DNA of 64,000 nt from Methanosarcina sp. MSH10X1. GTDB lineage: Archaea; Halobacteriota; Methanosarcinia; Methanosarcinales; Methanosarcinaceae. Below are positions 6,467 to 33,559 of the stretch, piece by piece. A program made the translations under genes and the position numbers. The notes under the pieces were generated by a model. It worked only from the letters and a program-made list of their open reading frames with translations. It was not told the origin of the DNA and ran no database searches. Within the stretch, counting starts at the first letter, position 1, and the number at the start of each line of letters is the position of its first letter. The DNA lies in assembly GCF_004099695.1 (NCBI RefSeq), contig NZ_SCHL01000017.1:1-64000 (forward strand). Direction: 5' to 3'.

Positions 6467-6921
6467 GTCAGGGAAAAAGCCGGAATAACTCAGGGAAAAA
6501 GAAAAATCAGAATAAACCAGCAAGAAAAAAGCCCGGAGCAATTTAAGCAGAATGAAATACAGGAATAATCCAGGGAAAAATATTCTATAGAATATTCCTT
6601 CCTGCGGGCTTTTTAAGAAATCCTGAAATTCTTTGCCGCCAGGTCACTTTTTTTCTTAGAGGCGCGGGAACTTTTTCTTTTATTCCTGTGCCTTTTTGTA
6701 ATTTATCTTCCTTTAATCTTTTATTCAATTTATTTGTTTTTAATGTTTGTCTATTTTTGAATCCATCTCTTAATAATTGTTTCCCGTGTTGAAATTAATA
6801 TCTTGGCTTTTTAAATATTAATCTAACTGATTTTAAACCAAGAGATCTATTTGTACTTAAAGTTATATCTAGTAAATCAAGTTTTATTTTCTATTCATAT
6901 AATGTTTATTAAGGAGATCCT
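6467..6921. other. Intergenic region with terminator-like repeat
   Basis: No gene is seen. The left part carries decayed purine-rich repeats (cagggaaaaagccggaataa-like) and the inverted repeat listed separately. The right part is AT-rich and ends in a strong ribosome binding site (aaggagat) for the small frame at 6922. Confidence 0.5.
6526..6614 (+). terminator. Long inverted repeat with inner 18-bp palindrome
   Basis: aaaaagcccg at 6526-6535 pairs perfectly with cgggcttttt at 6605-6614. Between the arms is a perfect palindrome, aatattctatagaatatt, at 6579-6596. The position 60 bases after the response regulator stop and the T-run on the outer arm suggest transcript termination. The inner palindrome could equally be a binding site. 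Confidence 0.45.
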
Positions 6922-7559
6922 ATGTCCTTTGAGTCTGATGAGCAGAGAAAAGCTGTAATGGCAACATTATATTATAATGGAATGTTATATGATAGAAGCT
7001 ATTTTGACAGTCCTGACTGGTCAAGCTATATATATGACTATAATTCAAAACTACTTCAAAAGAAATAGAAGAAACAAGAAAAAGATTAGAACGAGAAAGA
7101 AAAGAACTAAATTCTAAAGAGATTGAAAAAAAAATAAAAGCTTATCAAGAGACATGCCAAAAAAAACAAACTCTTACACTATTAAACGAAATCCAGCAAA
7201 TTCTTTCTCGTAAGGAACCAAAAGAGTATGAAGCGATTAAATTGCTTTCACTTGAATTCAATAATTTAATTAAAAAGGCAGTGCAAACTGGCATTGATAG
7301 GGAAATAAGATTGCTACTTAGAGAAAAACAGCAGCATTTGGCAAAGATCTTACTTGAACGTGCAGCTATAGAACGAGAAATTTCAGAAATTGATTTTCTA
7401 ATTAAATATTATGATATTAATGAATCGCTTTATTTTCTAATTGCTGATGTAATAATAAGAGCTGAACAGGCATACTTTGATAAAAGTACAATACTACAAC
7501 TGCAAGAAAAACTCAACCATGTAGCCAAGGTAATAATAAAACAGAAGTCACAAGAGTAA
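6922..7559 (+). pseudogene. Coiled-coil protein gene broken by a frameshift
   Basis: A strong aaggagat site precedes ATG 6922, which opens a 48-codon frame (MSFESDEQRKAVMATLYYNG...) ending at TAG 7066-7068. The -1 frame is open without a stop from 7044 to the TAA at 7559, yet has no ATG, GTG or TTG before 7242. Joined near 7044-7060, the two frames give a protein of about 212 residues whose middle is a charged coiled coil (KEIEETRKRLERERKELN). So this looks like one gene with a net -1 shift, from mutation, sequencing error or recoding. I see no classic slippery heptamer at the junction. The function is unknown. It lies between the two response regulator genes. Confidence 0.55.
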
Positions 7560-24389: not shown

Positions 24390-25145
24390 TCATAACTCAA
24401 GTTTCATCAGGTCTTCGGCAAGAATCACCTCTCCTTCAAAGTACCTTTTAAGGCGGTTTACGGTTTCCTTTTCATGCCCCTGCATTTCCGGGTAAAAATG
24501 TGTAAGGCAGATGCTTCCTATTTCTATACCTGACTCTTCCAGGAGGCCTGCGAGTGTGCCTGGTGTGGTATGGTTTGTGACTTTCATGCCTGAGGGAAAG
24601 GAGCACTCATGAATCAGGAGATCGGCGTCGGCTGCAAGCCCCATTATCTCCCTGGAGGGCTCGGTGTCTCCGGAGTAAACGAATTCCCCATCCTCTCCGG
24701 TCACGCGGTAAGCCAGAGTCGGAACGCTGTGCGCGGCTGCCATGCAGCTGATCTCACAGTCGAAACCGTCAGGAGTGAATTCTTTTCCCGGGGAGAGCTC
24801 TATAACATCCACATCCACTTCTTCCTGAAGATATTCATAAGCGTCAAGCACTTTCGAAAACCATTCTTCGGTTCCTTCAGGCCCGTATACCTTCATACTG
24901 GTACTTCCGCGGAGCCAGTTTGCCTTGATCAGGGGAAGCAGGTCAGCCACGTGGTCAAGATGAAGGTGTGAGAGCAATACCGTATCTACTTCGGTATGGG
25001 AAACCCCAGCCTCAGGAAACCTGCTCAATACACCGCTTCCGCAGTCGATTAGTAGCGGCTTTTCCTCAAGCCTGACAAGCACTCCTGACTGTACCCGATT
25101 CCTCTGAGGGATCGCAACTCCAGTGCCAAGAAATGTAATTTCCAT
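24390..25145 (-). CDS. Metallo-beta-lactamase-fold hydrolase, RNase Z-like
   Basis: A 251-residue protein with the full MBL metal motifs: HLHLDH near residue 60, AAHSVPTLAYRV near residue 138, YSGDTEPS near residue 157 and THFYPEM near residue 216. The N-terminus MEITFLGTGVAIPQRNR is typical of the RNase Z/ElaC and arylsulfatase-like branch. True tRNase Z has a longer exosite arm that I do not see, so a general phosphodiesterase-like hydrolase is safer. It reads away from tRNA-Leu. The plus-strand frame across it is a shadow. Confidence 0.82.
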   Translation of the reverse strand: MEITFLGTGVAIPQRNRVQSGVLVRLEEKPLLIDCGSGVLSRFPEAGVSHTEVDTVLLSHLHLDHVADLLPLIKANWLRGSTSMKVYGPEGTEEWFSKVLDAYEYLQEEVDVDVIELSPGKEFTPDGFDCEISCMAAAHSVPTLAYRVTGEDGEFVYSGDTEPSREIMGLAADADLLIHECSFPSGMKVTNHTTPGTLAGLLEESGIEIGSICLTHFYPEMQGHEKETVNRLKRYFEGEVILAEDLMKLEL

Positions 25146-25242: not shown

Positions 25243-25327
25243 GCGAGGGTTGCCCAGCCCGGTCAAAGGCGCCGGACTTAAGATCCGGTATCGAAGGATT
25301 TCGTGGGTTCGAATCCCACCCCTCGCA
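25243..25327 (+). tRNA. tRNA-Leu (anticodon TAA)
   Basis: An 85-nt type II tRNA. Acceptor gcgaggg (25243-25249) pairs with ccctcgc (25320-25326), discriminator A. Anticodon stem ccgga/tccgg surrounds loop cttaaga, giving anticodon TAA. There is a long variable arm before the T-arm gggttcgaatccc. CCA is not encoded. A damaged copy of its 3' two-thirds lies 7.8 kb downstream in the same orientation. Confidence 0.95.
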
Positions 25328-25627
25328 TTAGATTTTTGGGTAATAGGTAAGTCAAATTTTTTGTACGCTAGTGCAAGAGTTATGCACAACCGATTATTTT
25401 AGAAAGTTGTTTTAACCAAAATAAATTACTATATTTCTATAATATAGGTCAAATAAAAAATCCTCTTTTTGCACTTTTTGTATCAAATTAATGAATAGCT
25501 AATTTTGCCAAGAGGATGAAAACATTCAAATGATTCAATTTAATCGAGAATGTTAATAGTGTAAAGAGTTGCTTTCAGTTAACCTTATTTTCGTTTCTGA
25601 ATTCTTCGATTGCATTTTCTATCAACT

Positions 25628-28339
25628 CTATGATCTCAGTGCATTCACATTCTCTAAGCTCGGGTTTTTTATTATCTCTAAAATTTCCTCAAATACATCT
25701 ACTGTCAATCTTGACATATAAGAATACTTTTTCTTAAGACGTTTTAAACTGTCTACTAATTGCCTTAATTCATGATACTCTATTAGATTATGTTTCAAAG
25801 ACAGGATTGCTAATCTATGAAATGATTCAAAGACCTCTTCTACCATCCAATATAAGCATTCTTCACTTTCCGGCTTATCGCTGTCGTCTGAATATTTGAA
25901 GTCGTAGACTAGAAAATTTGCTCTGGAGAAAAGGAACGGTAGAAAAATATTATTCAACGAAAATTTGTTCCGAAGATGAATTGATATAATTCCAAAATTT
26001 TCGAAACATTTAATTATCATAGTAAAAGGTTTTAGCGTTTCGAAGGTTGGTGAATTTTGCGCATAATTTAGTATAGGATCAGCAAGTTTTCCTAATGAAT
26101 TGGGTATTTCATAATATGCCTTCTTAGATTTTTCAATAACTCCTATTTTAAAGATTTTTAAATTAGATGCAAAGTGTTTGCCTTCTATATCATTAAGGTG
26201 AAATGCCTTTATATTTTTGTCTTTTACATTATTTATTAACAGCGCATTGTCTTCATCATTTCTATCGGTTATTTCTAATGAAAAAGAAAGATTTGAATTA
26301 TTTTTATCCTCAACTGTTATTGTCCACCAACTGGTAAAATATATCTGCGAGTCTTCCTCATCTAGATGTGCATTATACTCTTCATTTAGAAACTCAATTA
26401 TTTTACTTTTATCTATATCCCATTCAAACAAATAACCAAAATGAAGTATTCCGATTGAATATAAAGTTTTAATTATGTCTTCGACTAAGGGAAAAGTTTT
26501 TTCTTTATTTATGGCTTTCTGTCCAATATTTTCTATATTCTGACAAATAATTCTGGATTGGGTGCCGCTTCTAAGAATTCTGTCAATAATTTCTAGCGAT
26601 TTAAGGCATTGTTTTGGTGCATCTAAAAGGTTATTTTCAACGGCGTTTTCCCCTATAGAAGCTATATAAGCTGAAATATCTATTATATCAATGAGCACTT
26701 TTTGATGTAGTTTTTCCAATGAATTCTTTGCTCTGGGTGCATATTTATAGTTTGATTTAATATGGTCATAATATTCAACGACCTGATATTGTGTTTCGTC
26801 GGAAAGTTCTTTTGAATGGCAATCTATTTTGAATGCTAAGTTTTCTAAGCACTTCACTATTTGCACAGTTGAATATTCAATTTCAGTTCCTCTTTTTGTG
26901 GATTCTTTACCGATGATCCATAGGTTTTTCAGAATGTGGGATACACTATGTATAAGATTATTATCAATTGCTCTTTCTCCAATATAAGTGAGAGTTTTAA
27001 TAACTTCATCTAACGCATTTTTTGAGTCTGAGTTAATTGCAGCGATTCCTATATCACCTAAAAAATATGATAACTCGGATATCGAACCCTCGAGTTTTTC
27101 AAAAATTTTTATTTGCTCATTTATTTTGATTTCATTTCGCCTGATAAAAGTATTTTTTGCAATTTTTTGAATCTGCTTTATTAAATATATCGATAATTCG
27201 GCAAATTCTTCTTCTTTTATTTTTATAATTGATTTAAAAGCTTCTTTTAAATAATACTCAGACAAAAAAGTAGTATATAAAAAATCTTTTTGCGTTACTT
27301 TTTCTTCTACCTCGGGCGTACCGATGGCGTTGTGTAATGTGATCAAAACTTTTGTTTTTAATTTTGAAACAAAATCAGTATTTAAATCTGATTCATTTAC
27401 GAGATAAGTGCATTCTCGACCAATGAAGCAACATTCTATCAGTATCATTTTGATTAATCTAAGATCATTATCTCTCAAAGCTAACTTCCAAATTTCTAAA
27501 ATACGATTGAATACATGTCCTGATATTCGTTCTTCATCAGTTGGGTTTTTTATAAGAATAATAAAAAGGCTATTTGTTACTTCTCCAAGAGCATATCTTG
27601 CGGTAGCGTAATCATATCGCTTAATTGAAGTCTGTATGATGTCAATTATCGGTAAAAAAGGATCCTTCTCATCATCGTCTAGACTTATAATAGTCCTATT
27701 AATTCTAGGCTCGTCTTCGAAAATTTTACTTTTGTATTCGCCTATTTCATATAAAGAGCTTGATAAATTTTTTATGTCAATTTTTTCAGATAAAACGTCA
27801 ATTATTGAGCTTGGTTTCATCATTTTTAAGATATATGGAATATAGGCAACGAGTGAAATATATGCGGAAACTGAGAGTAAAAGAGCTAGAGTATAGAAGA
27901 TTTCTAAATACTTGATACCCAGGTATAATACAGTATAAAACACTTCTAAATATTTGATATCGAAGTACGGATAATCATTAATTGAGGCATTTATTAACCT
28001 GATGACAATAAGAGAAAAAATTATTGAAGAGCCATTAAAGAATATAAGCGCTTGCAGTCTCAAGTCATTCTTAAAAATATCAACAACTCTTGCTGAATAG
28101 GTTGACGCAGAATACTGTATCACTAATAAGCTCAGACTTATAACGATGGCTACAATAGAAGCACTAATTTGAACAATAGTTGTCAACAAATATAATGCAC
28201 TATCTGGATCTGTAAATATAAAACAAGAAAACCCCGCATATATAAGGCAAAATAAAGTGAAAAAAAAGATAAGTAGTGATAACCAAATTTCTTTTGTTTG
28301 CTGAAAAAAATAATGAATTACTTTTCTAAACTTGTTCAT
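25628..28339 (-). CDS. Large membrane-anchored alpha-solenoid protein
   Basis: A 903-residue protein. The N-terminal about 180 residues hold four or five hydrophobic helices (WLSLLIFFFTLFCLIYAGF, IVAIVISLSLLVIQYSAS), with the segment SLLVIQYSASTYSARVVDIF resembling DUF2254-type membrane proteins. A tandem repeat of about 14 residues occurs within the membrane part (KYLEVFYTVLYL / KYLEIFYTLALL). The remainder is a long, Lys/Glu/Ile-rich helical solenoid. The function is unknown; membrane anchor plus large cytoplasmic solenoid in a mobile context would suit a defence or stress effector, but that is speculation. In-frame A_AAA_AAC at 25670-25664 precedes the TAG, and the -1 frame stays open to 25575, giving a 921-residue alternative product. 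The gene is more AT-rich than its neighbours. Confidence 0.7.
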   Translation of the reverse strand: MNKFRKVIHYFFQQTKEIWLSLLIFFFTLFCLIYAGFSCFIFTDPDSALYLLTTIVQISASIVAIVISLSLLVIQYSASTYSARVVDIFKNDLRLQALIFFNGSSIIFSLIVIRLINASINDYPYFDIKYLEVFYTVLYLGIKYLEIFYTLALLLSVSAYISLVAYIPYILKMMKPSSIIDVLSEKIDIKNLSSSLYEIGEYKSKIFEDEPRINRTIISLDDDEKDPFLPIIDIIQTSIKRYDYATARYALGEVTNSLFIILIKNPTDEERISGHVFNRILEIWKLALRDNDLRLIKMILIECCFIGRECTYLVNESDLNTDFVSKLKTKVLITLHNAIGTPEVEEKVTQKDFLYTTFLSEYYLKEAFKSIIKIKEEEFAELSIYLIKQIQKIAKNTFIRRNEIKINEQIKIFEKLEGSISELSYFLGDIGIAAINSDSKNALDEVIKTLTYIGERAIDNNLIHSVSHILKNLWIIGKESTKRGTEIEYSTVQIVKCLENLAFKIDCHSKELSDETQYQVVEYYDHIKSNYKYAPRAKNSLEKLHQKVLIDIIDISAYIASIGENAVENNLLDAPKQCLKSLEIIDRILRSGTQSRIICQNIENIGQKAINKEKTFPLVEDIIKTLYSIGILHFGYLFEWDIDKSKIIEFLNEEYNAHLDEEDSQIYFTSWWTITVEDKNNSNLSFSLEITDRNDEDNALLINNVKDKNIKAFHLNDIEGKHFASNLKIFKIGVIEKSKKAYYEIPNSLGKLADPILNYAQNSPTFETLKPFTMIIKCFENFGIISIHLRNKFSLNNIFLPFLFSRANFLVYDFKYSDDSDKPESEECLYWMVEEVFESFHRLAILSLKHNLIEYHELRQLVDSLKRLKKKYSYMSRLTVDVFEEILEIIKNPSLENVNALRS

Positions 28340-28517: not shown

Positions 28518-29009
28518 TTACACATTTTTACTTTGACTTGAAACCAGAGCTTCCCACTTATTCACTCTTTCCAGAACATTAGCATTAAGAGTAAACGGCT
28601 TATCTGATTTTGCATTCTGCTTCATATAATGCAAAGTACCTTTAGAAAACCCTAGTTTCTTCCAGTCAACATAAGAAATATTAAGAATCTTCTGCCTTAT
28701 GTCATATGAATCAATTCTTTCAATTTCATACTCAGGCTTAACAAAATCCAGTTTCTCCTTTTTGCTTATGAGGTATTGGGCTAATCCTCTTACCTTCAGA
28801 AAGATAATATAACTCCATGTGCTTTCTTTACCCTGAAAACTTACTTTTTTATTCAGCATATTGGAGTACTCATTAACAACCTTCCTGGCTCCTGTAGGTT
28901 TTAGCCCGAGATTGTAATTCTCAGTCCTTATGAAATCCTTAGTTTCCATAGCTTCGCTTTCAATCAGACTAATAGCTGCAAAACAAGAAACCTGAAAGGT
29001 TCCTGAAGG
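28518..29009 (-). pseudogene. C-terminal fragment of a Cas1-family integrase (CRISPR Cas1 or casposase)
   Basis: The frame is open from an in-frame TGA (29010-29012) to the stop at 28518; the first ATG is at 28949 (143 residues). The pattern SLIESEAMETKDFIRTENY, then LGLKPTGARKVVNEYSNML, matches the Cas1 C-terminal region where helices follow the catalytic His/Asp part. It ends with a helix-turn-helix-like tail (WKKLGFSKGTLHYMKQNA). An HTH tail is described for casposase Cas1 proteins; I also recall similar tails in Methanosarcina CRISPR Cas1, so both stay open. The N-terminal two thirds, with the catalytic Glu, are missing, so it cannot be an active integrase. No CRISPR repeats, cas2 or other cas genes are nearby. 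Confidence 0.55.
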
Positions 29010-29211
29010 TCACAGGAATCATTCAATCCTTGAGCTGTCCCACCTTCAGATAAATACGAAAAGAAAAATGTAAGTGTAATGAAAGAATAATTCTCATATA
29101 TATACAATTTTCCTGGGAATGAGATAATTTTTGACATCAAATTCAGAGTTTAATTGGATAATTCTATAGAAAGTATCCGGAGCTGAAAAATAAGATCTGA
29201 GGTTTTGCACA

Positions 29212-29606
29212 TGAAATATTTGATGATCAATGGAAAAAAAGAAGAGATCCCTCCTTTTCCGCATCATAAGGCTTTCATCTACAGGAGTAAGCAGTTCTTT
29301 TTTGCTAAAGGAATGTCAACTCGTTTAACAATGGGCAATTTCATTACTCTGAAAGAAGCTCTACCGTTGATTTAAAAATAAATATTTCATTCCAAAAGGG
29401 CTCTTCTGGTAGACCCGACCAGTAATTGTAATTTGAAGTGTAAAGGGTGCTGGTCTAAGGATTATGAGAGTGGTCATGGCATTTCGCATGAAAAACTTGA
29501 TGCTGCGATTTTCCCGCCTGACGAAATCAAAATCAACCCTGCCTTATGCATATTTGCTAGTTTTCTGTTAATACCGGGTTCCTATCCTGAAAGCGCATAT
29601 ATCTAG
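29212..29606 (+). pseudogene. Degraded and truncated radical SAM gene
   Basis: ATG 29212, preceded by gagg nine bases upstream, opens MKYLMINGKKEEIPPFPHH... for 54 codons to a TAA. After two close stops and at least one frame change the sequence continues as LLVDPTSNCNLKCKGCWSKD, which contains the radical SAM cluster motif CxxxCxxC, and runs to a TAG at 29604. The SAM-binding and C-terminal parts of a normal 300-350-residue enzyme are absent. The gene is therefore truncated as well as interrupted. The intact relatives I recall are uncharacterised radical SAM proteins of methanogens and clostridia. Confidence 0.65.
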
Positions 29607-29850: not shown

Positions 29851-31743
29851 ATGCTTGAAAACCTGCGAAAAGTAGAGCAACAGAGAAAAGCTTCTCAAAG
29901 GTATTATAGCCGGCAGAAAGCTGCTGAAGCGGGGGGACCGGGCGAGAGATTAAGACATGAAATCACCAGGTCCTTGAGGGAGGCACAATCTATAGAGAAG
30001 CGCCTGATCTTTCTTGAACCAGGGGATGGCATGGCACTGGAGAGGATCAGGGGAAAGAGCGATCTCGTCGGTATCTCCTATCTGGAGCTTGGACTGCTTG
30101 CTGCCAGACCTGTCTGCAGGATCCAGATCGTGAATACCTTTGGCAGGTCAGAGGGTTACGGTACGGGTTTTCTTGTCGGCCCAAATCTGCTGCTGACGAA
30201 TAACCATATCCTCGATACAGCAGAACTGGCAAAGAAGAGTTTTGCAGAGTTTGAATTCGAACAGGATATAAAAGGTCGACGGAAGACATCCAGGTCCTTC
30301 GACCTCCGGCCCGACGAGATCTTCGTCACTGATCCGGACCTGGACTTCACACTGGTATCCGTAGCCCCGGTTGCCACAGAAGGGACAGAGCTTAGCGATT
30401 ACGGATTTTTGCATCTTGTGGAAGACACCGGCAAGATCTTGACCGGCGAACACATTTCCATAATTCAGCATCCCGATGGCGGTTTCAAGCATTGCTGCCT
30501 GCGGGAAAACGAAGTTGTAGATATCTTCGGCAACTGGCTGTACTATCTGACCGACACTCAGCCTGCAGCTTCAGGCTCACCCGTATTCAACGATCAGTGG
30601 CTGGTTGTAAGCCTGCAACACTCAGGAGTGCCGATGAAAGATGCACAGGGGAACATCCTTAAAACAGATGGTCAGCCTTATCGTGAAGGCATAGATAATG
30701 CCAGCACTCTAGCCTGGGTAGCCAATGAGAGCGTGCGCATCAGCTGCATCATCCAGGCACTGGAGTCGCGCAGCGAGAACGAGCCGATGGCAGTGGAAGC
30801 TCTGTGCAGGCTTCGAAGCCATGTCACTGGTCCGGCCGGACCTGCAGTCATAACCGCCCCAGAGTCAATCCACGGAGCAGCAATGAAGCTGGGAGAATTG
30901 CCCGCGGAACACTACCTCCTGGCGGATGGCTACAACCCCGATTTCCTGGGTTCTCTGCATCCTGTGCCTCTTCCAAAGCTGGCAGATAATCTTCAGTCCA
31001 GAGTCGCAAAGCTCAAAGACGGGAGAGAGGTTCTCACCTACCTGCATTTCTCGATTGTGATGAATGCGGATAGAAGGCTGGCCTTCTACACCGCAGTCAA
31101 TATTGACGGCAAGAAGCTGGAGAACATCAAACGCGGCCGCGACAGATGGTACTTTGATCCGCGTCTCGACCAGAAATTTCAAGCCGGACCCAAATTGTAT
31201 GAAGGCAATCCACTTGACCGCGGACATCTGGTTCGCCGGCTGGATCCCTGCTGGGGATCAAATGCCAGGGAAGCGGGAGAGGATACATTCCATTTTACAA
31301 ACTGCTCACCTCAGCACGAGCGCCTCAACCAGCGTGATTGGCTCGAAGTGGAAGATTACATACTGAAGACCGCAGATAATACCAATGAGCGGATAGCGGT
31401 ATTCACCGGTCCGGTCTTTCGTGAAGACGATATGATTTACCGCAATGAGTACCTCCTGCCTGCCGATTTCTGGAAGGTGGTGGCATTCATCAATAAGAAC
31501 GGCAAGCTCAGCGCCACTGCCTACCTGCGCACGCAGAAGAATTATCTGGAGAGCTTGAAGTTCTTCGACGATGAGTTCAAGACCTGGCAAGTACCGGTAG
31601 CGCAGGTTGAGGCGCTGACAGGCCTGTCATTCGGCTTGCCTGCAGATGCCGATCCTATGGCGCGGGCAGCAACCGGAAAAGATCTGGAAAGCCAGAGAAG
31701 AAATATCCGAAGGATTCGCTCTGCTGCGGATATAATGCTCTGA
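29851..31743 (+). CDS. Trypsin-like serine protease fused to DNA/RNA non-specific endonuclease
   Basis: About 630 residues. After a charged N-terminal helix (to about residue 75) comes a trypsin-like fold: GTGFLVGPNLLLTNNHIL with His119, DPDLDFTLVSV with Asp165, and AASGSPVFND with Ser241, the full triad. A linker follows, then a NUC1-type (PF01223) endonuclease from about residue 380, with the DRGH catalytic motif at 456-459 (LDRGHLVRRLDP) and the metal-ligand Asn in FTNCSPQHERLNQ. There is no signal peptide, so it should act in the cytoplasm or be released conditionally. Protease-nuclease fusions are known among bacterial conflict systems; a defence or suicide role is inferred. G+C content and codon choice (cgc, ctg, gcg) are higher than its neighbours, suggesting transfer from bacteria. 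ATG 29851 has gagggg at good spacing; TTG 29827 is an alternative. Confidence 0.85.
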   Translation: MLENLRKVEQQRKASQRYYSRQKAAEAGGPGERLRHEITRSLREAQSIEKRLIFLEPGDGMALERIRGKSDLVGISYLELGLLAARPVCRIQIVNTFGRSEGYGTGFLVGPNLLLTNNHILDTAELAKKSFAEFEFEQDIKGRRKTSRSFDLRPDEIFVTDPDLDFTLVSVAPVATEGTELSDYGFLHLVEDTGKILTGEHISIIQHPDGGFKHCCLRENEVVDIFGNWLYYLTDTQPAASGSPVFNDQWLVVSLQHSGVPMKDAQGNILKTDGQPYREGIDNASTLAWVANESVRISCIIQALESRSENEPMAVEALCRLRSHVTGPAGPAVITAPESIHGAAMKLGELPAEHYLLADGYNPDFLGSLHPVPLPKLADNLQSRVAKLKDGREVLTYLHFSIVMNADRRLAFYTAVNIDGKKLENIKRGRDRWYFDPRLDQKFQAGPKLYEGNPLDRGHLVRRLDPCWGSNAREAGEDTFHFTNCSPQHERLNQRDWLEVEDYILKTADNTNERIAVFTGPVFREDDMIYRNEYLLPADFWKVVAFINKNGKLSATAYLRTQKNYLESLKFFDDEFKTWQVPVAQVEALTGLSFGLPADADPMARAATGKDLESQRRNIRRIRSAADIML

Positions 31744-32739: not shown

Positions 32740-32760
32740 TTTTATCCCCCAATTTTAAAT

Positions 32761-32802
32761 TCTTCATGTAGTATTCTTCATGTAGTATTCTTCATGTAGT
32801 AT
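32761..32802. repeat. Three exact tandem copies of a 14-bp unit
   Basis: tcttcatgtagtat occurs three times without spacing between the two tiny minus-strand genes. It contains no start site and probably arose by slippage. Confidence 0.85.
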
Positions 32803-32804
32803 TC

Positions 32805-32945
32805 TTATCCGAAAATCATTATTGAATCAAGTCTCGCGGTGCCTGCTTTTGTCCAGTAGCTGCAAATACTACAATACTGGGTCTCGCCATCCGAGTGCAT
32901 TTTAAGACTAGCCTGGCATTTTGGACATGTTTTTAGATGTTTCAT
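32805..32945 (-). CDS. 46-residue zinc-ribbon protein
   Basis: ATG 32945 has gaggga at six-base spacing. The product MKHLKTCPKCQASLKM... carries CPKC and, 14 residues later, CSIC: a compact four-Cys zinc ribbon, followed by a short tail rich in Ala and Ile. An upstream in-frame ATG at 32960 is possible but lacks a site. Such mini zinc fingers are common among methanogen small proteins. It may bind nucleic acid or a partner protein, and it sits in tandem with the acidic microprotein downstream, so the two could be co-translated. Confidence 0.6.
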   Translation of the reverse strand: MKHLKTCPKCQASLKMHSDGETQYCSICSYWTKAGTARLDSIMIFG

Positions 32946-33129
32946 AATTAAATCCCTCATAATTTGGAAAAGAGTCAGTAATCTCTGGAACTTTTTGTTT
33001 TAATATATCCTAACTCAAGAACATAGTAATATCATAAAATATATTAAATAAATGATATCAAAATTTGTATTCAAGCGAAAAATTGTTTGACGTAAAAAAT
33101 TTCAGGTTCATTATAGAGTGAAACTTACC

Positions 33130-33181
33130 CGAAATTAAGATCCGGTATTAAAAGGTTTTCGGGTTCGAACCCCACACGCAC
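33130..33181 (+). pseudogene. Decayed 3' part of tRNA-Leu(TAA), attachment-site-like
   Basis: Aligned with tRNA-Leu positions 25272-25327. It keeps ttaagatccggtat exactly (anticodon loop, 3' anticodon stem and start of the variable arm), then a shortened variable arm and gggttcgaacccc. The 5' half of the tRNA is absent and the anticodon stem is mismatched (ccgaa against tccgg), so it cannot be functional. It is in direct orientation with the intact gene, as expected for an attR-type remnant. Confidence 0.65.
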
Positions 33182-33559
33182 AAATATTTGATTCCATTTA
33201 ACTCTAATTTTTCGTTAAGGATCCTGGTTGTATTGCCGGTGGAGATATTGCACACATAGAATTTTTCCTTCGGACAGCAAATCTTGCCATATGCGGTGCT
33301 GATACTGGCTTTCTCCCATATTATTGTACTATCGTAGACAGATGTATAAATTATGGTACTTATACAGGCAGAATGAGATCATAAAAAGTATACAGGCAGA
33401 ATGAGATCATAAAAAGTATACAGACAGAATGAGATCATAAAGGGAATACGGACAAAAATAAACAAAAATAAAAAGTATTTAATAAAAAGAATATATAGAC
33501 CTGGAGCTTAGATCTGGCTCCATTTTCTGAACTGTTTTATCTTATTTATGTGCATTACC
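33182..33559. other. Intergenic region after tRNA remnant
   Basis: It holds the 28-bp triple repeat and the 3' flank of the PKD gene. No gene is seen. Confidence 0.5.
33361..33444. repeat. Three tandem copies of a 28-bp unit
   Basis: Units start at 33361, 33389 and 33417, beginning tatacaggcagaatgagat and ending with an a-run. The third copy differs at a few bases. There are no spacers, so this is not a CRISPR array. Confidence 0.85.

What the first reader, a model, noticed from the sequence alone, without database searches (positions are those of the whole stretch)
29851..31743. Trypsin-like protease fused to NUC1 endonuclease, probably transferred
Full Ser protease triad and full DRGH nuclease motif on one chain, with no secretion signal, in a mobile-looking setting and with composition unlike neighbours. 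An attractive model is self-cleavage releasing a toxic nuclease in response to infection. The linker between domains would hold the cleavage site.
Basis: partly seen in the sequence, partly recalled or inferred. Interest (0 to 1): 0.6.

Follow-up and report, generated by a model that had tools for sequence, protein, structure and literature searches.

The report
Archaeal protease–nuclease fusion, probable suicide enzyme
A methane-making archaeon carries, in a DNA-insertion hotspot beside a tRNA gene, an intracellular protein that joins a protein-cutter to a DNA/RNA-cutter; it belongs to a predicted but untested family of bacterial anti-invader (cell-suicide) proteins, so it is a worthwhile new member rather than a new kind of system.

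Summary
One open frame (ATG 29851 to 31743, 630 aa) holds a Trypsin_2 protease and a complete Endonuclease_NS (NucA/EndoG) nuclease. All six catalytic residues are invariant in 96 homologues, and none of the 96 has an N-terminal hydrophobic segment. Both domains are under purifying selection in Methanosarcina and the linker less so. The window's own copy is the only one of 96 with Ala instead of Gly at the oxyanion-hole position.

"Probably transferred" is supported. The gene sits between an intact tRNA-Leu with a decayed casposon end and a decayed second tRNA-Leu piece; a truncated casposase lies beside it. Related genomes carry it at the same tRNA or have the site empty. The Methanosarcina copies nest within a mainly bacterial tree.

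The architecture is not new: Kaur et al. 2020 (PMC7159879) described NucA-trypsin systems, fused or in operons, and predicted proteolytic deployment of the nuclease. Bacterial relatives here show the same partners (EAD-trypsins, subtilases, NACHT, CHAT). Tuck et al. 2025 proved the principle for an unrelated nuclease. Best reading: a stand-alone archaeal member, a latent nuclease set free by its own FAM111A-like protease. Cleavage, toxicity and defence are untested.

The parts
29851..31743 (+). Trypsin_2-Endonuclease_NS fusion gene, 630 aa
   Evidence: ORF, Pfam, 96-member alignment
29851..30015 (+). N-terminal helical hairpin (residues 1-55; helices 5-27 and 30-52), polar, no signal peptide
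   Evidence: AlphaFold2 model; hydropathy
30031..30816 (+). Trypsin-like protease domain (residues 61-322); H119 at 30205-30207, D165 at 30343-30345, S241 at 30571-30573
   Evidence: Pfam, invariance, best structural match FAM111A protease domain Z 23.1
30565..30567 (+). Codon 239, Ala in place of the oxyanion-hole Gly found in the other 95 homologues
30817..30888 (+). Variable linker (residues 323-346; 326-342 under pLDDT 50), candidate cleavage region
   Evidence: linker (residues 301-358) dN/dS 0.19-0.52 against about 0.12-0.24 in the catalytic domains
30925..31650 (+). NucA/EndoG-type nuclease domain (residues 359-600); DRGH 456-459, N493, E501
   Evidence: Pfam, matches to EndoG and Serratia nuclease at Z about 20-21
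25243..25327 (+). Intact tRNA-Leu (TAA), left edge of the inserted region
   Evidence: ARAGORN, Rfam RF00005
25324..25337 (+). CGCATTAGATTTTT, matches the casposon target-site form (CGCA + AT-rich, last 4 bp of tRNA-Leu)
25338..25368 (+). Decayed casposon terminal repeat directly after the target site (20 of 31 bases to the M. mazei repeat; a few mismatches to the G093 right repeat)
28518..28949 (-). Truncated casposase (Cas1-solo), matching residues 283-422 only
   Evidence: PDB 6OPM, E 1.4e-80
25628..28339 (-). DUF2254-type membrane protein, 30% GC, inside the inserted region; no evidence of partnership
33129..33178 (+). Decayed 3' copy of tRNA-Leu ending in CGCA + AT-rich, right edge of the inserted region

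Best explanation
This is a stand-alone, intracellular archaeal member of the predicted NucA-trypsin conflict family. Proposed mechanism: (1) the chain is made as a latent nuclease; (2) an infection or DNA-stress cue, perhaps clustering through the N-terminal helices and the short helix before the protease barrel, activates the FAM111A-like protease; (3) the protease cuts its own chain or a neighbour's in the disordered linker (about residues 323-346); (4) the freed NucA/EndoG-type nuclease degrades DNA and RNA, killing or arresting the cell and stopping the invader. Shown here: fusion, intact catalytic residues, no secretion signal, purifying selection, mobile patchy distribution, conflict-type neighbours in bacterial relatives. 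Inferred: steps 1 to 4.
For: Domains and residues conserved in 96 homologues, none with a signal-like N-terminus. dN/dS in Methanosarcina about 0.15-0.21 for the protease, 0.12-0.24 for the nuclease, 0.19-0.52 for the linker. Kaur et al. 2020 define this domain pair as a conflict system and predict proteolytic deployment. Relatives share its partners: EAD5-trypsin plus a second trypsin in one Bradyrhizobium operon, EAD1-trypsin beside another EAD1 protein in a same-class archaeon, subtilase (5 of 44), NACHT (2), CHAT (2) and AAA neighbours. Patchy and broken copies in the genus; tRNA-Leu insertion with empty sites. Disordered linker. Protease fold closest to FAM111A, which dimerises through an N-terminal helix, autocleaves and restricts viruses. 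Precedent: trypsin-activated pro-nucleases in Hachiman and Avs (Tuck et al. 2025).
Against: No cleavage, toxicity or defence data. No sensor, EAD or antitoxin recognised next to the Methanosarcina gene. No conserved cleavage motif in the linker. The window copy has Ala239, which may weaken its protease. NucA/EndoG domains need no proteolysis in several known enzymes, so latency of the nuclease is assumed. PADLOC gives only weak hits to other trypsin domains.
Confidence: 0.55

Rival explanations
1. DNA-protein-crosslink or stalled-fork repair enzyme: the FAM111A-like protease removes the protein and the nuclease trims the DNA, with no cell killing.
For: The best structural match of the protease is FAM111A (Z 23.1, 213 residues, 2.6 A), which acts at DNA-protein crosslinks; the nuclease resembles EndoG and EXOG, the latter a repair enzyme.
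Against: Patchy distribution, decay in some genomes, plasmid and tRNA-island location, and conflict-type neighbours are unusual for a repair enzyme. HtrA, DegS and V8 proteases match the fold nearly as well (Z 21-22).
Confidence: 0.15
2. Selfish or stabilising cargo of a mobile element: the enzyme destroys competing elements or kills cells that lose the element, rather than serving host immunity.
For: Located at a casposon-targeted tRNA-Leu with a casposase remnant; the cassette travels as about 2.3-2.9 kb with little else; relatives on conjugative plasmids.
Against: No antitoxin-like partner recognised; long retention at 82-85% identity under purifying selection.
Confidence: 0.15
3. Toxin delivered to other cells in inter-microbial conflict, with the protease domain as an autoprocessing module.
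For: Nucleases with processing peptidases are common among polymorphic toxins (general knowledge; not tested here).
Against: No signal peptide, transmembrane segment, trafficking domain or immunity gene found with the Methanosarcina gene; the family is protease-first with a helical N-terminus.
Confidence: 0.05
4. In this particular genome the protease is impaired and the gene is on its way to decay, as in G133 and G087.
For: Ala239 unique among 96; G133 copy interrupted, G087 only a 43-residue remnant.
Against: The frame is intact, all six catalytic residues are kept, and dN/dS remains low.
Confidence: 0.15

Closest known systems
NucA-trypsin conflict systems ('System 3', Kaur et al. 2020, eLife, PMC7159879)
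   Same: Endonuclease_NS plus trypsin-like peptidase, fused or in one operon; subtilase, EAD and STAND partners found in relatives here
   Different: Reported mostly in alphaproteobacteria; the Methanosarcina form stands alone, lacks membrane segments and an EAD, and sits in a tRNA-Leu/casposon site
Trypsin-like protease with gated MBL pro-nuclease in Hachiman, Avs, Lamassu, DRT; canu (Tuck et al. 2025, Science, PMC12799240)
   Same: A protease coupled to a DNA-destroying nuclease for defence
   Different: There the nuclease is an MBL-fold protein from a separate gene with gating loops, and the protease is fused to an immune sensor; here it is an unrelated NucA/EndoG fold on the same chain with no sensor
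FAM111A (human antiviral and replication protease)
   Same: Closest protease fold, including the region of the dimerising N-terminal helix; profile match E 1.1e-9
   Different: No nuclease; chymotrypsin-like; eukaryotic
Tryp-Endonuclease_NS protein of Fusobacterium nucleatum (NP_604177.1, PMC2605481, 2008)
   Same: Same two Pfam-level domains noted in 2008
   Different: Single bacterial example annotated as nucleic acid metabolism; not compared in sequence here

Membership tests
NucA-trypsin conflict system (Kaur et al. 2020) | NucA (Endonuclease_NS) domain with catalytic residues | tested here: met
   Pfam E 9.1e-54; H459, N493, E501 invariant in 96 homologues
NucA-trypsin conflict system (Kaur et al. 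2020) | Trypsin-like peptidase fused to it or in the same operon | tested here: met
   Trypsin_2 on the same chain; H119, D165, S241 invariant
NucA-trypsin conflict system (Kaur et al. 2020) | Optional partners (EAD proteins, subtilase, STAND NTPase) in a subset of systems | tested here: inconclusive
   Found beside relatives; none recognised beside the window gene; EAD1 search of the own genome found nothing but its controls did not ring
NucA-trypsin conflict system (Kaur et al. 2020) | Proteolytic deployment of the nuclease | not testable with these tools
   A prediction also for the published members
MBL pro-nuclease/trypsin pairs (Tuck et al. 2025) | Nuclease of the metallo-beta-lactamase fold, separate gene | tested here: not met
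   Nuclease is Endonuclease_NS on the same chain; the MBL gene at 24390-25145 is conserved with or without the fusion
MBL pro-nuclease/trypsin pairs (Tuck et al. 2025) | Protease fused to an immune sensor (HamA, Avs1, LmuA) | tested here: not met
   No such domain in Pfam or PADLOC scans
Secreted Serratia/Anabaena-type nucleases or digestive proteases | N-terminal signal peptide | tested here: not met
   0 of 96 homologues with an N-terminal hydrophobic segment
FAM111A-like protease | Protease fold including the dimerising N-terminal helix region | tested here: met
   8S9K chain C aligned to residues 65-325, Z 23.1, rmsd 2.6, 213 residues
FAM111A-like protease | Activity dependent on dimerisation | not testable with these tools
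   No oligomer test available
Casposon cargo | Gene lies between two casposon terminal repeats with target duplications | tested here: inconclusive
   Left repeat and target site found at 25324-25368, casposase remnant at 28518-28949; no convincing right repeat

The most novel reading that the evidence does not exclude
A single-chain, self-activating suicide enzyme: a FAM111A-like protease that on sensing infection or abnormal DNA cuts its own linker and frees an EndoG-like nuclease, an archaeal counterpart of caspase-triggered DNA fragmentation, carried between methanogens at casposon-targeted tRNA-Leu sites.
Probability: 0.3. Interest if true: 0.7.

Novelty: new member of a known kind. Interest (0 to 1): 0.42.

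Why it matters
The NucA-trypsin family is widespread (at least 569 relatives in one capped scan), yet I found no experimental study of it in the papers searched. A compact one-gene version in a genetically tractable archaeal genus would make the predicted proteolytic release of a nuclease directly testable without an unknown sensor complex. It would also link a FAM111A-like protease and an EndoG-like nuclease, both with roles in eukaryotic antiviral defence or cell death, on one prokaryotic chain.

Tried and rejected
MBL gene at 24390-25145 as the partner nuclease of a Tuck-type pair: rejected, because it lies next to tRNA-Leu in 28 of 31 Methanosarcina genomes whether or not the fusion is present.

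Natural splitting of the fusion on plasmids as evidence of domain independence: in Rhizobium sp. 007 the break falls inside the nuclease and looks like a frameshift; Mesorhizobium huakuii is ambiguous; not used.

Conserved operon partner: neighbours clustered over 87 loci gave no universal partner; only subtilase recurs across phyla.

Viral carriage: two IMG/VR scans found no relative; phage records give only weak nuclease-domain matches.

Casposon boundaries around the 2.8 kb cassette in M. spelaei and G202: no right terminal repeat found.

S1-pocket specificity from D235: not claimed, since the loop differs in length between trypsin, HtrA and V8-type enzymes and FAM111A is chymotrypsin-like.

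Literature: no experimental paper on Endonuclease_NS-trypsin fusions found; the library lacks most subscription journals.

Full report
WHAT IS THERE. The frame 29851-31743 (+) encodes 630 residues. Pfam finds Trypsin_2 at 104-253 (E 3.4e-17) and Endonuclease_NS at 383-595 (E 9.1e-54), both far above their cut-offs. The AlphaFold2 model from a 51-sequence alignment has mean pLDDT 86.8. It shows an N-terminal helical hairpin, a protease barrel ending about residue 322, a disordered stretch at 326-342 and a nuclease domain from about 359. pTM is only 0.55, so the placement of the two domains relative to each other is not known. The protease part alone gives pLDDT 92.3 and pTM 0.90.

CONSERVATION. 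In an alignment of 96 mostly full-length fusions, H119, D165, S241, H459, N493 and E501 are identical in all. None has an N-terminal hydrophobic segment. Within Methanosarcinaceae the orthologues are 82-85% identical. Nei-Gojobori dN/dS against the window copy is 0.15-0.21 for the protease and 0.12-0.24 for the nuclease, against 0.19-0.52 for the linker. Both enzymatic activities therefore appear to be under selection while the linker drifts. One warning: the window copy has PAASGSP where relatives have a Gly as the second of these residues. The Ala replaces the oxyanion-hole Gly of 95 other sequences. Whether this is a real change or a sequencing error cannot be told here; from general knowledge such a change would be expected to weaken, not necessarily abolish, activity.

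SETTING AND TRANSFER. The gene is intact in nine other Methanosarcinaceae genomes of the class sample, interrupted in G133, reduced to a 43-residue remnant in G087 and absent from most. A metallo-beta-lactamase gene followed by tRNA-Leu(TAA) is conserved in 28 of 31 genus genomes, three showing only tRNA-type matches. In G044, G116, G101, G124 and G200 a PKD-repeat surface protein follows; in several of these it lies about 1 kb beyond the tRNA. In the window about 7.9 kb lies between this tRNA (25243-25327) and a decayed 3' copy of it at 33129-33178. The tRNA ends in CGCATTAGATTTTT, the form of a casposon target site (CGCA plus AT-rich). It is followed at once by GGGTAATAGGTAAGTC..., a decayed casposon terminal repeat. 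This was the only full-length match at 11 or fewer mismatches on its strand in 64 kb; five shuffled sequences gave 12-13 at best. The ORF at 28518-28949 is the last third of a Methanosarcina casposase (PDB 6OPM, E 1.4e-80). Casposons of M. mazei are known to enter tRNA-Leu genes.

EMPTY SITE. M. spelaei (G130) and G202 carry the fusion at the same tRNA-Leu. G116 aligns on both sides at about 91-94% but lacks 2,779 bp relative to M. spelaei and 2,860 bp relative to G202, at one and the same junction. G101 lacks the stretch from the tRNA end onward. Elsewhere the gene lies near a tRNA-Leu or a piece of one in G066, G064 (both sides), G101 and G166. No right-hand terminal repeat was found, so the fusion is in or beside a decayed casposon region but not proven to be its cargo.

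PHYLOGENY. In a quick maximum-likelihood tree the Methanosarcina copies form one clade (100) with a Methylococcales MAG as neighbour (93), inside a set dominated by Bacillota, Chloroflexota and Pseudomonadota. The only other archaeal row is one Bathyarchaeota MAG. This favours acquisition from bacteria; the root and the donor are not established.

CONTEXT IN RELATIVES. Bacterial relatives sit beside subtilases (5 of 44 scanned neighbours), NACHT (2), CHAT (2), AAA proteins, metallopeptidases and a C92 peptidase. The 44 were chosen partly because they looked like candidates, so these counts are not frequencies. A Bradyrhizobium operon holds the fusion, an EAD5-trypsin and another trypsin. A same-class archaeon has a related trypsin with a sub-threshold EAD1 match next to a clear EAD1 protein. 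This matches 'System 3' of Kaur et al. 2020, whose text says the NucA and trypsin domains may be fused and that the nuclease is probably deployed by a proteolytic cascade. The immediate Methanosarcina neighbourhood shows no such partner.

MECHANISM. The protease is of the V8/Spl/HtrA type; its best structural match is human FAM111A (Z 23.1, 213 residues, rmsd 2.6), ahead of HtrA1 and V8 by 1-2 Z units, with profile support at E 1.1e-9. FAM111A dimerises through a helix at the start of its protease domain, which orders the oxyanion hole; it autocleaves and restricts viruses. The aligned range includes that helix region (model residues 65 onward). I therefore propose cue-driven clustering, cleavage in the disordered linker and release of the nuclease. 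Each of these steps is inference. Tuck et al. 2025 show that trypsin-like proteases do activate nucleases in Hachiman and Avs and that forced dimerisation of the protease suffices for toxicity. Their nuclease is an unrelated MBL fold on a separate gene, so this is a parallel, not membership.

VERDICT. Observation confirmed; transfer supported and made concrete; self-release model plausible, previously published in outline, untested. New member of a known kind.

Noticed in passing
window 28518-28949 (-): Truncated casposase (Cas1-solo), matching residues 283-422 of the M. mazei enzyme (6OPM, E 1.4e-80); an 88% copy lies at the same tRNA in G093, which has two casposon terminal repeats around it.
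   Followed up: partly
L138 (G124), downstream of tRNA-Leu(TAA): Five extra tRNA-Leu copies or fragments spread over about 19 kb after the MBL gene, suggesting repeated insertions at this site in Methanosarcina.
   Followed up: partly
window 25628-28339 (-): A 903-residue DUF2254-type membrane protein of 30% GC inside the inserted region; no relative found in the ten tRNA-Leu loci compared.
   Followed up: no
window 29015-29585: Decayed stretch with a radical-SAM-like cysteine-motif coding remnant; 90% identical pieces occur in the tRNA-Leu hotspot of G044.
   Followed up: no
window 33361-33457 and 32759-32806: Short tandem repeats (28-base and 14-base units) between the fusion gene and the PKD protein.
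   Followed up: no
L012 1195-3313: An archaeal gene pair: trypsin with a weak N-terminal EAD1 match, followed by a second EAD1 protein with an unassigned C-terminal region.
   Followed up: partly
L110 (G124) 6608-6922: A detached C-terminal fragment of the fusion gene next to the intact copy, a partial duplication.
   Followed up: no
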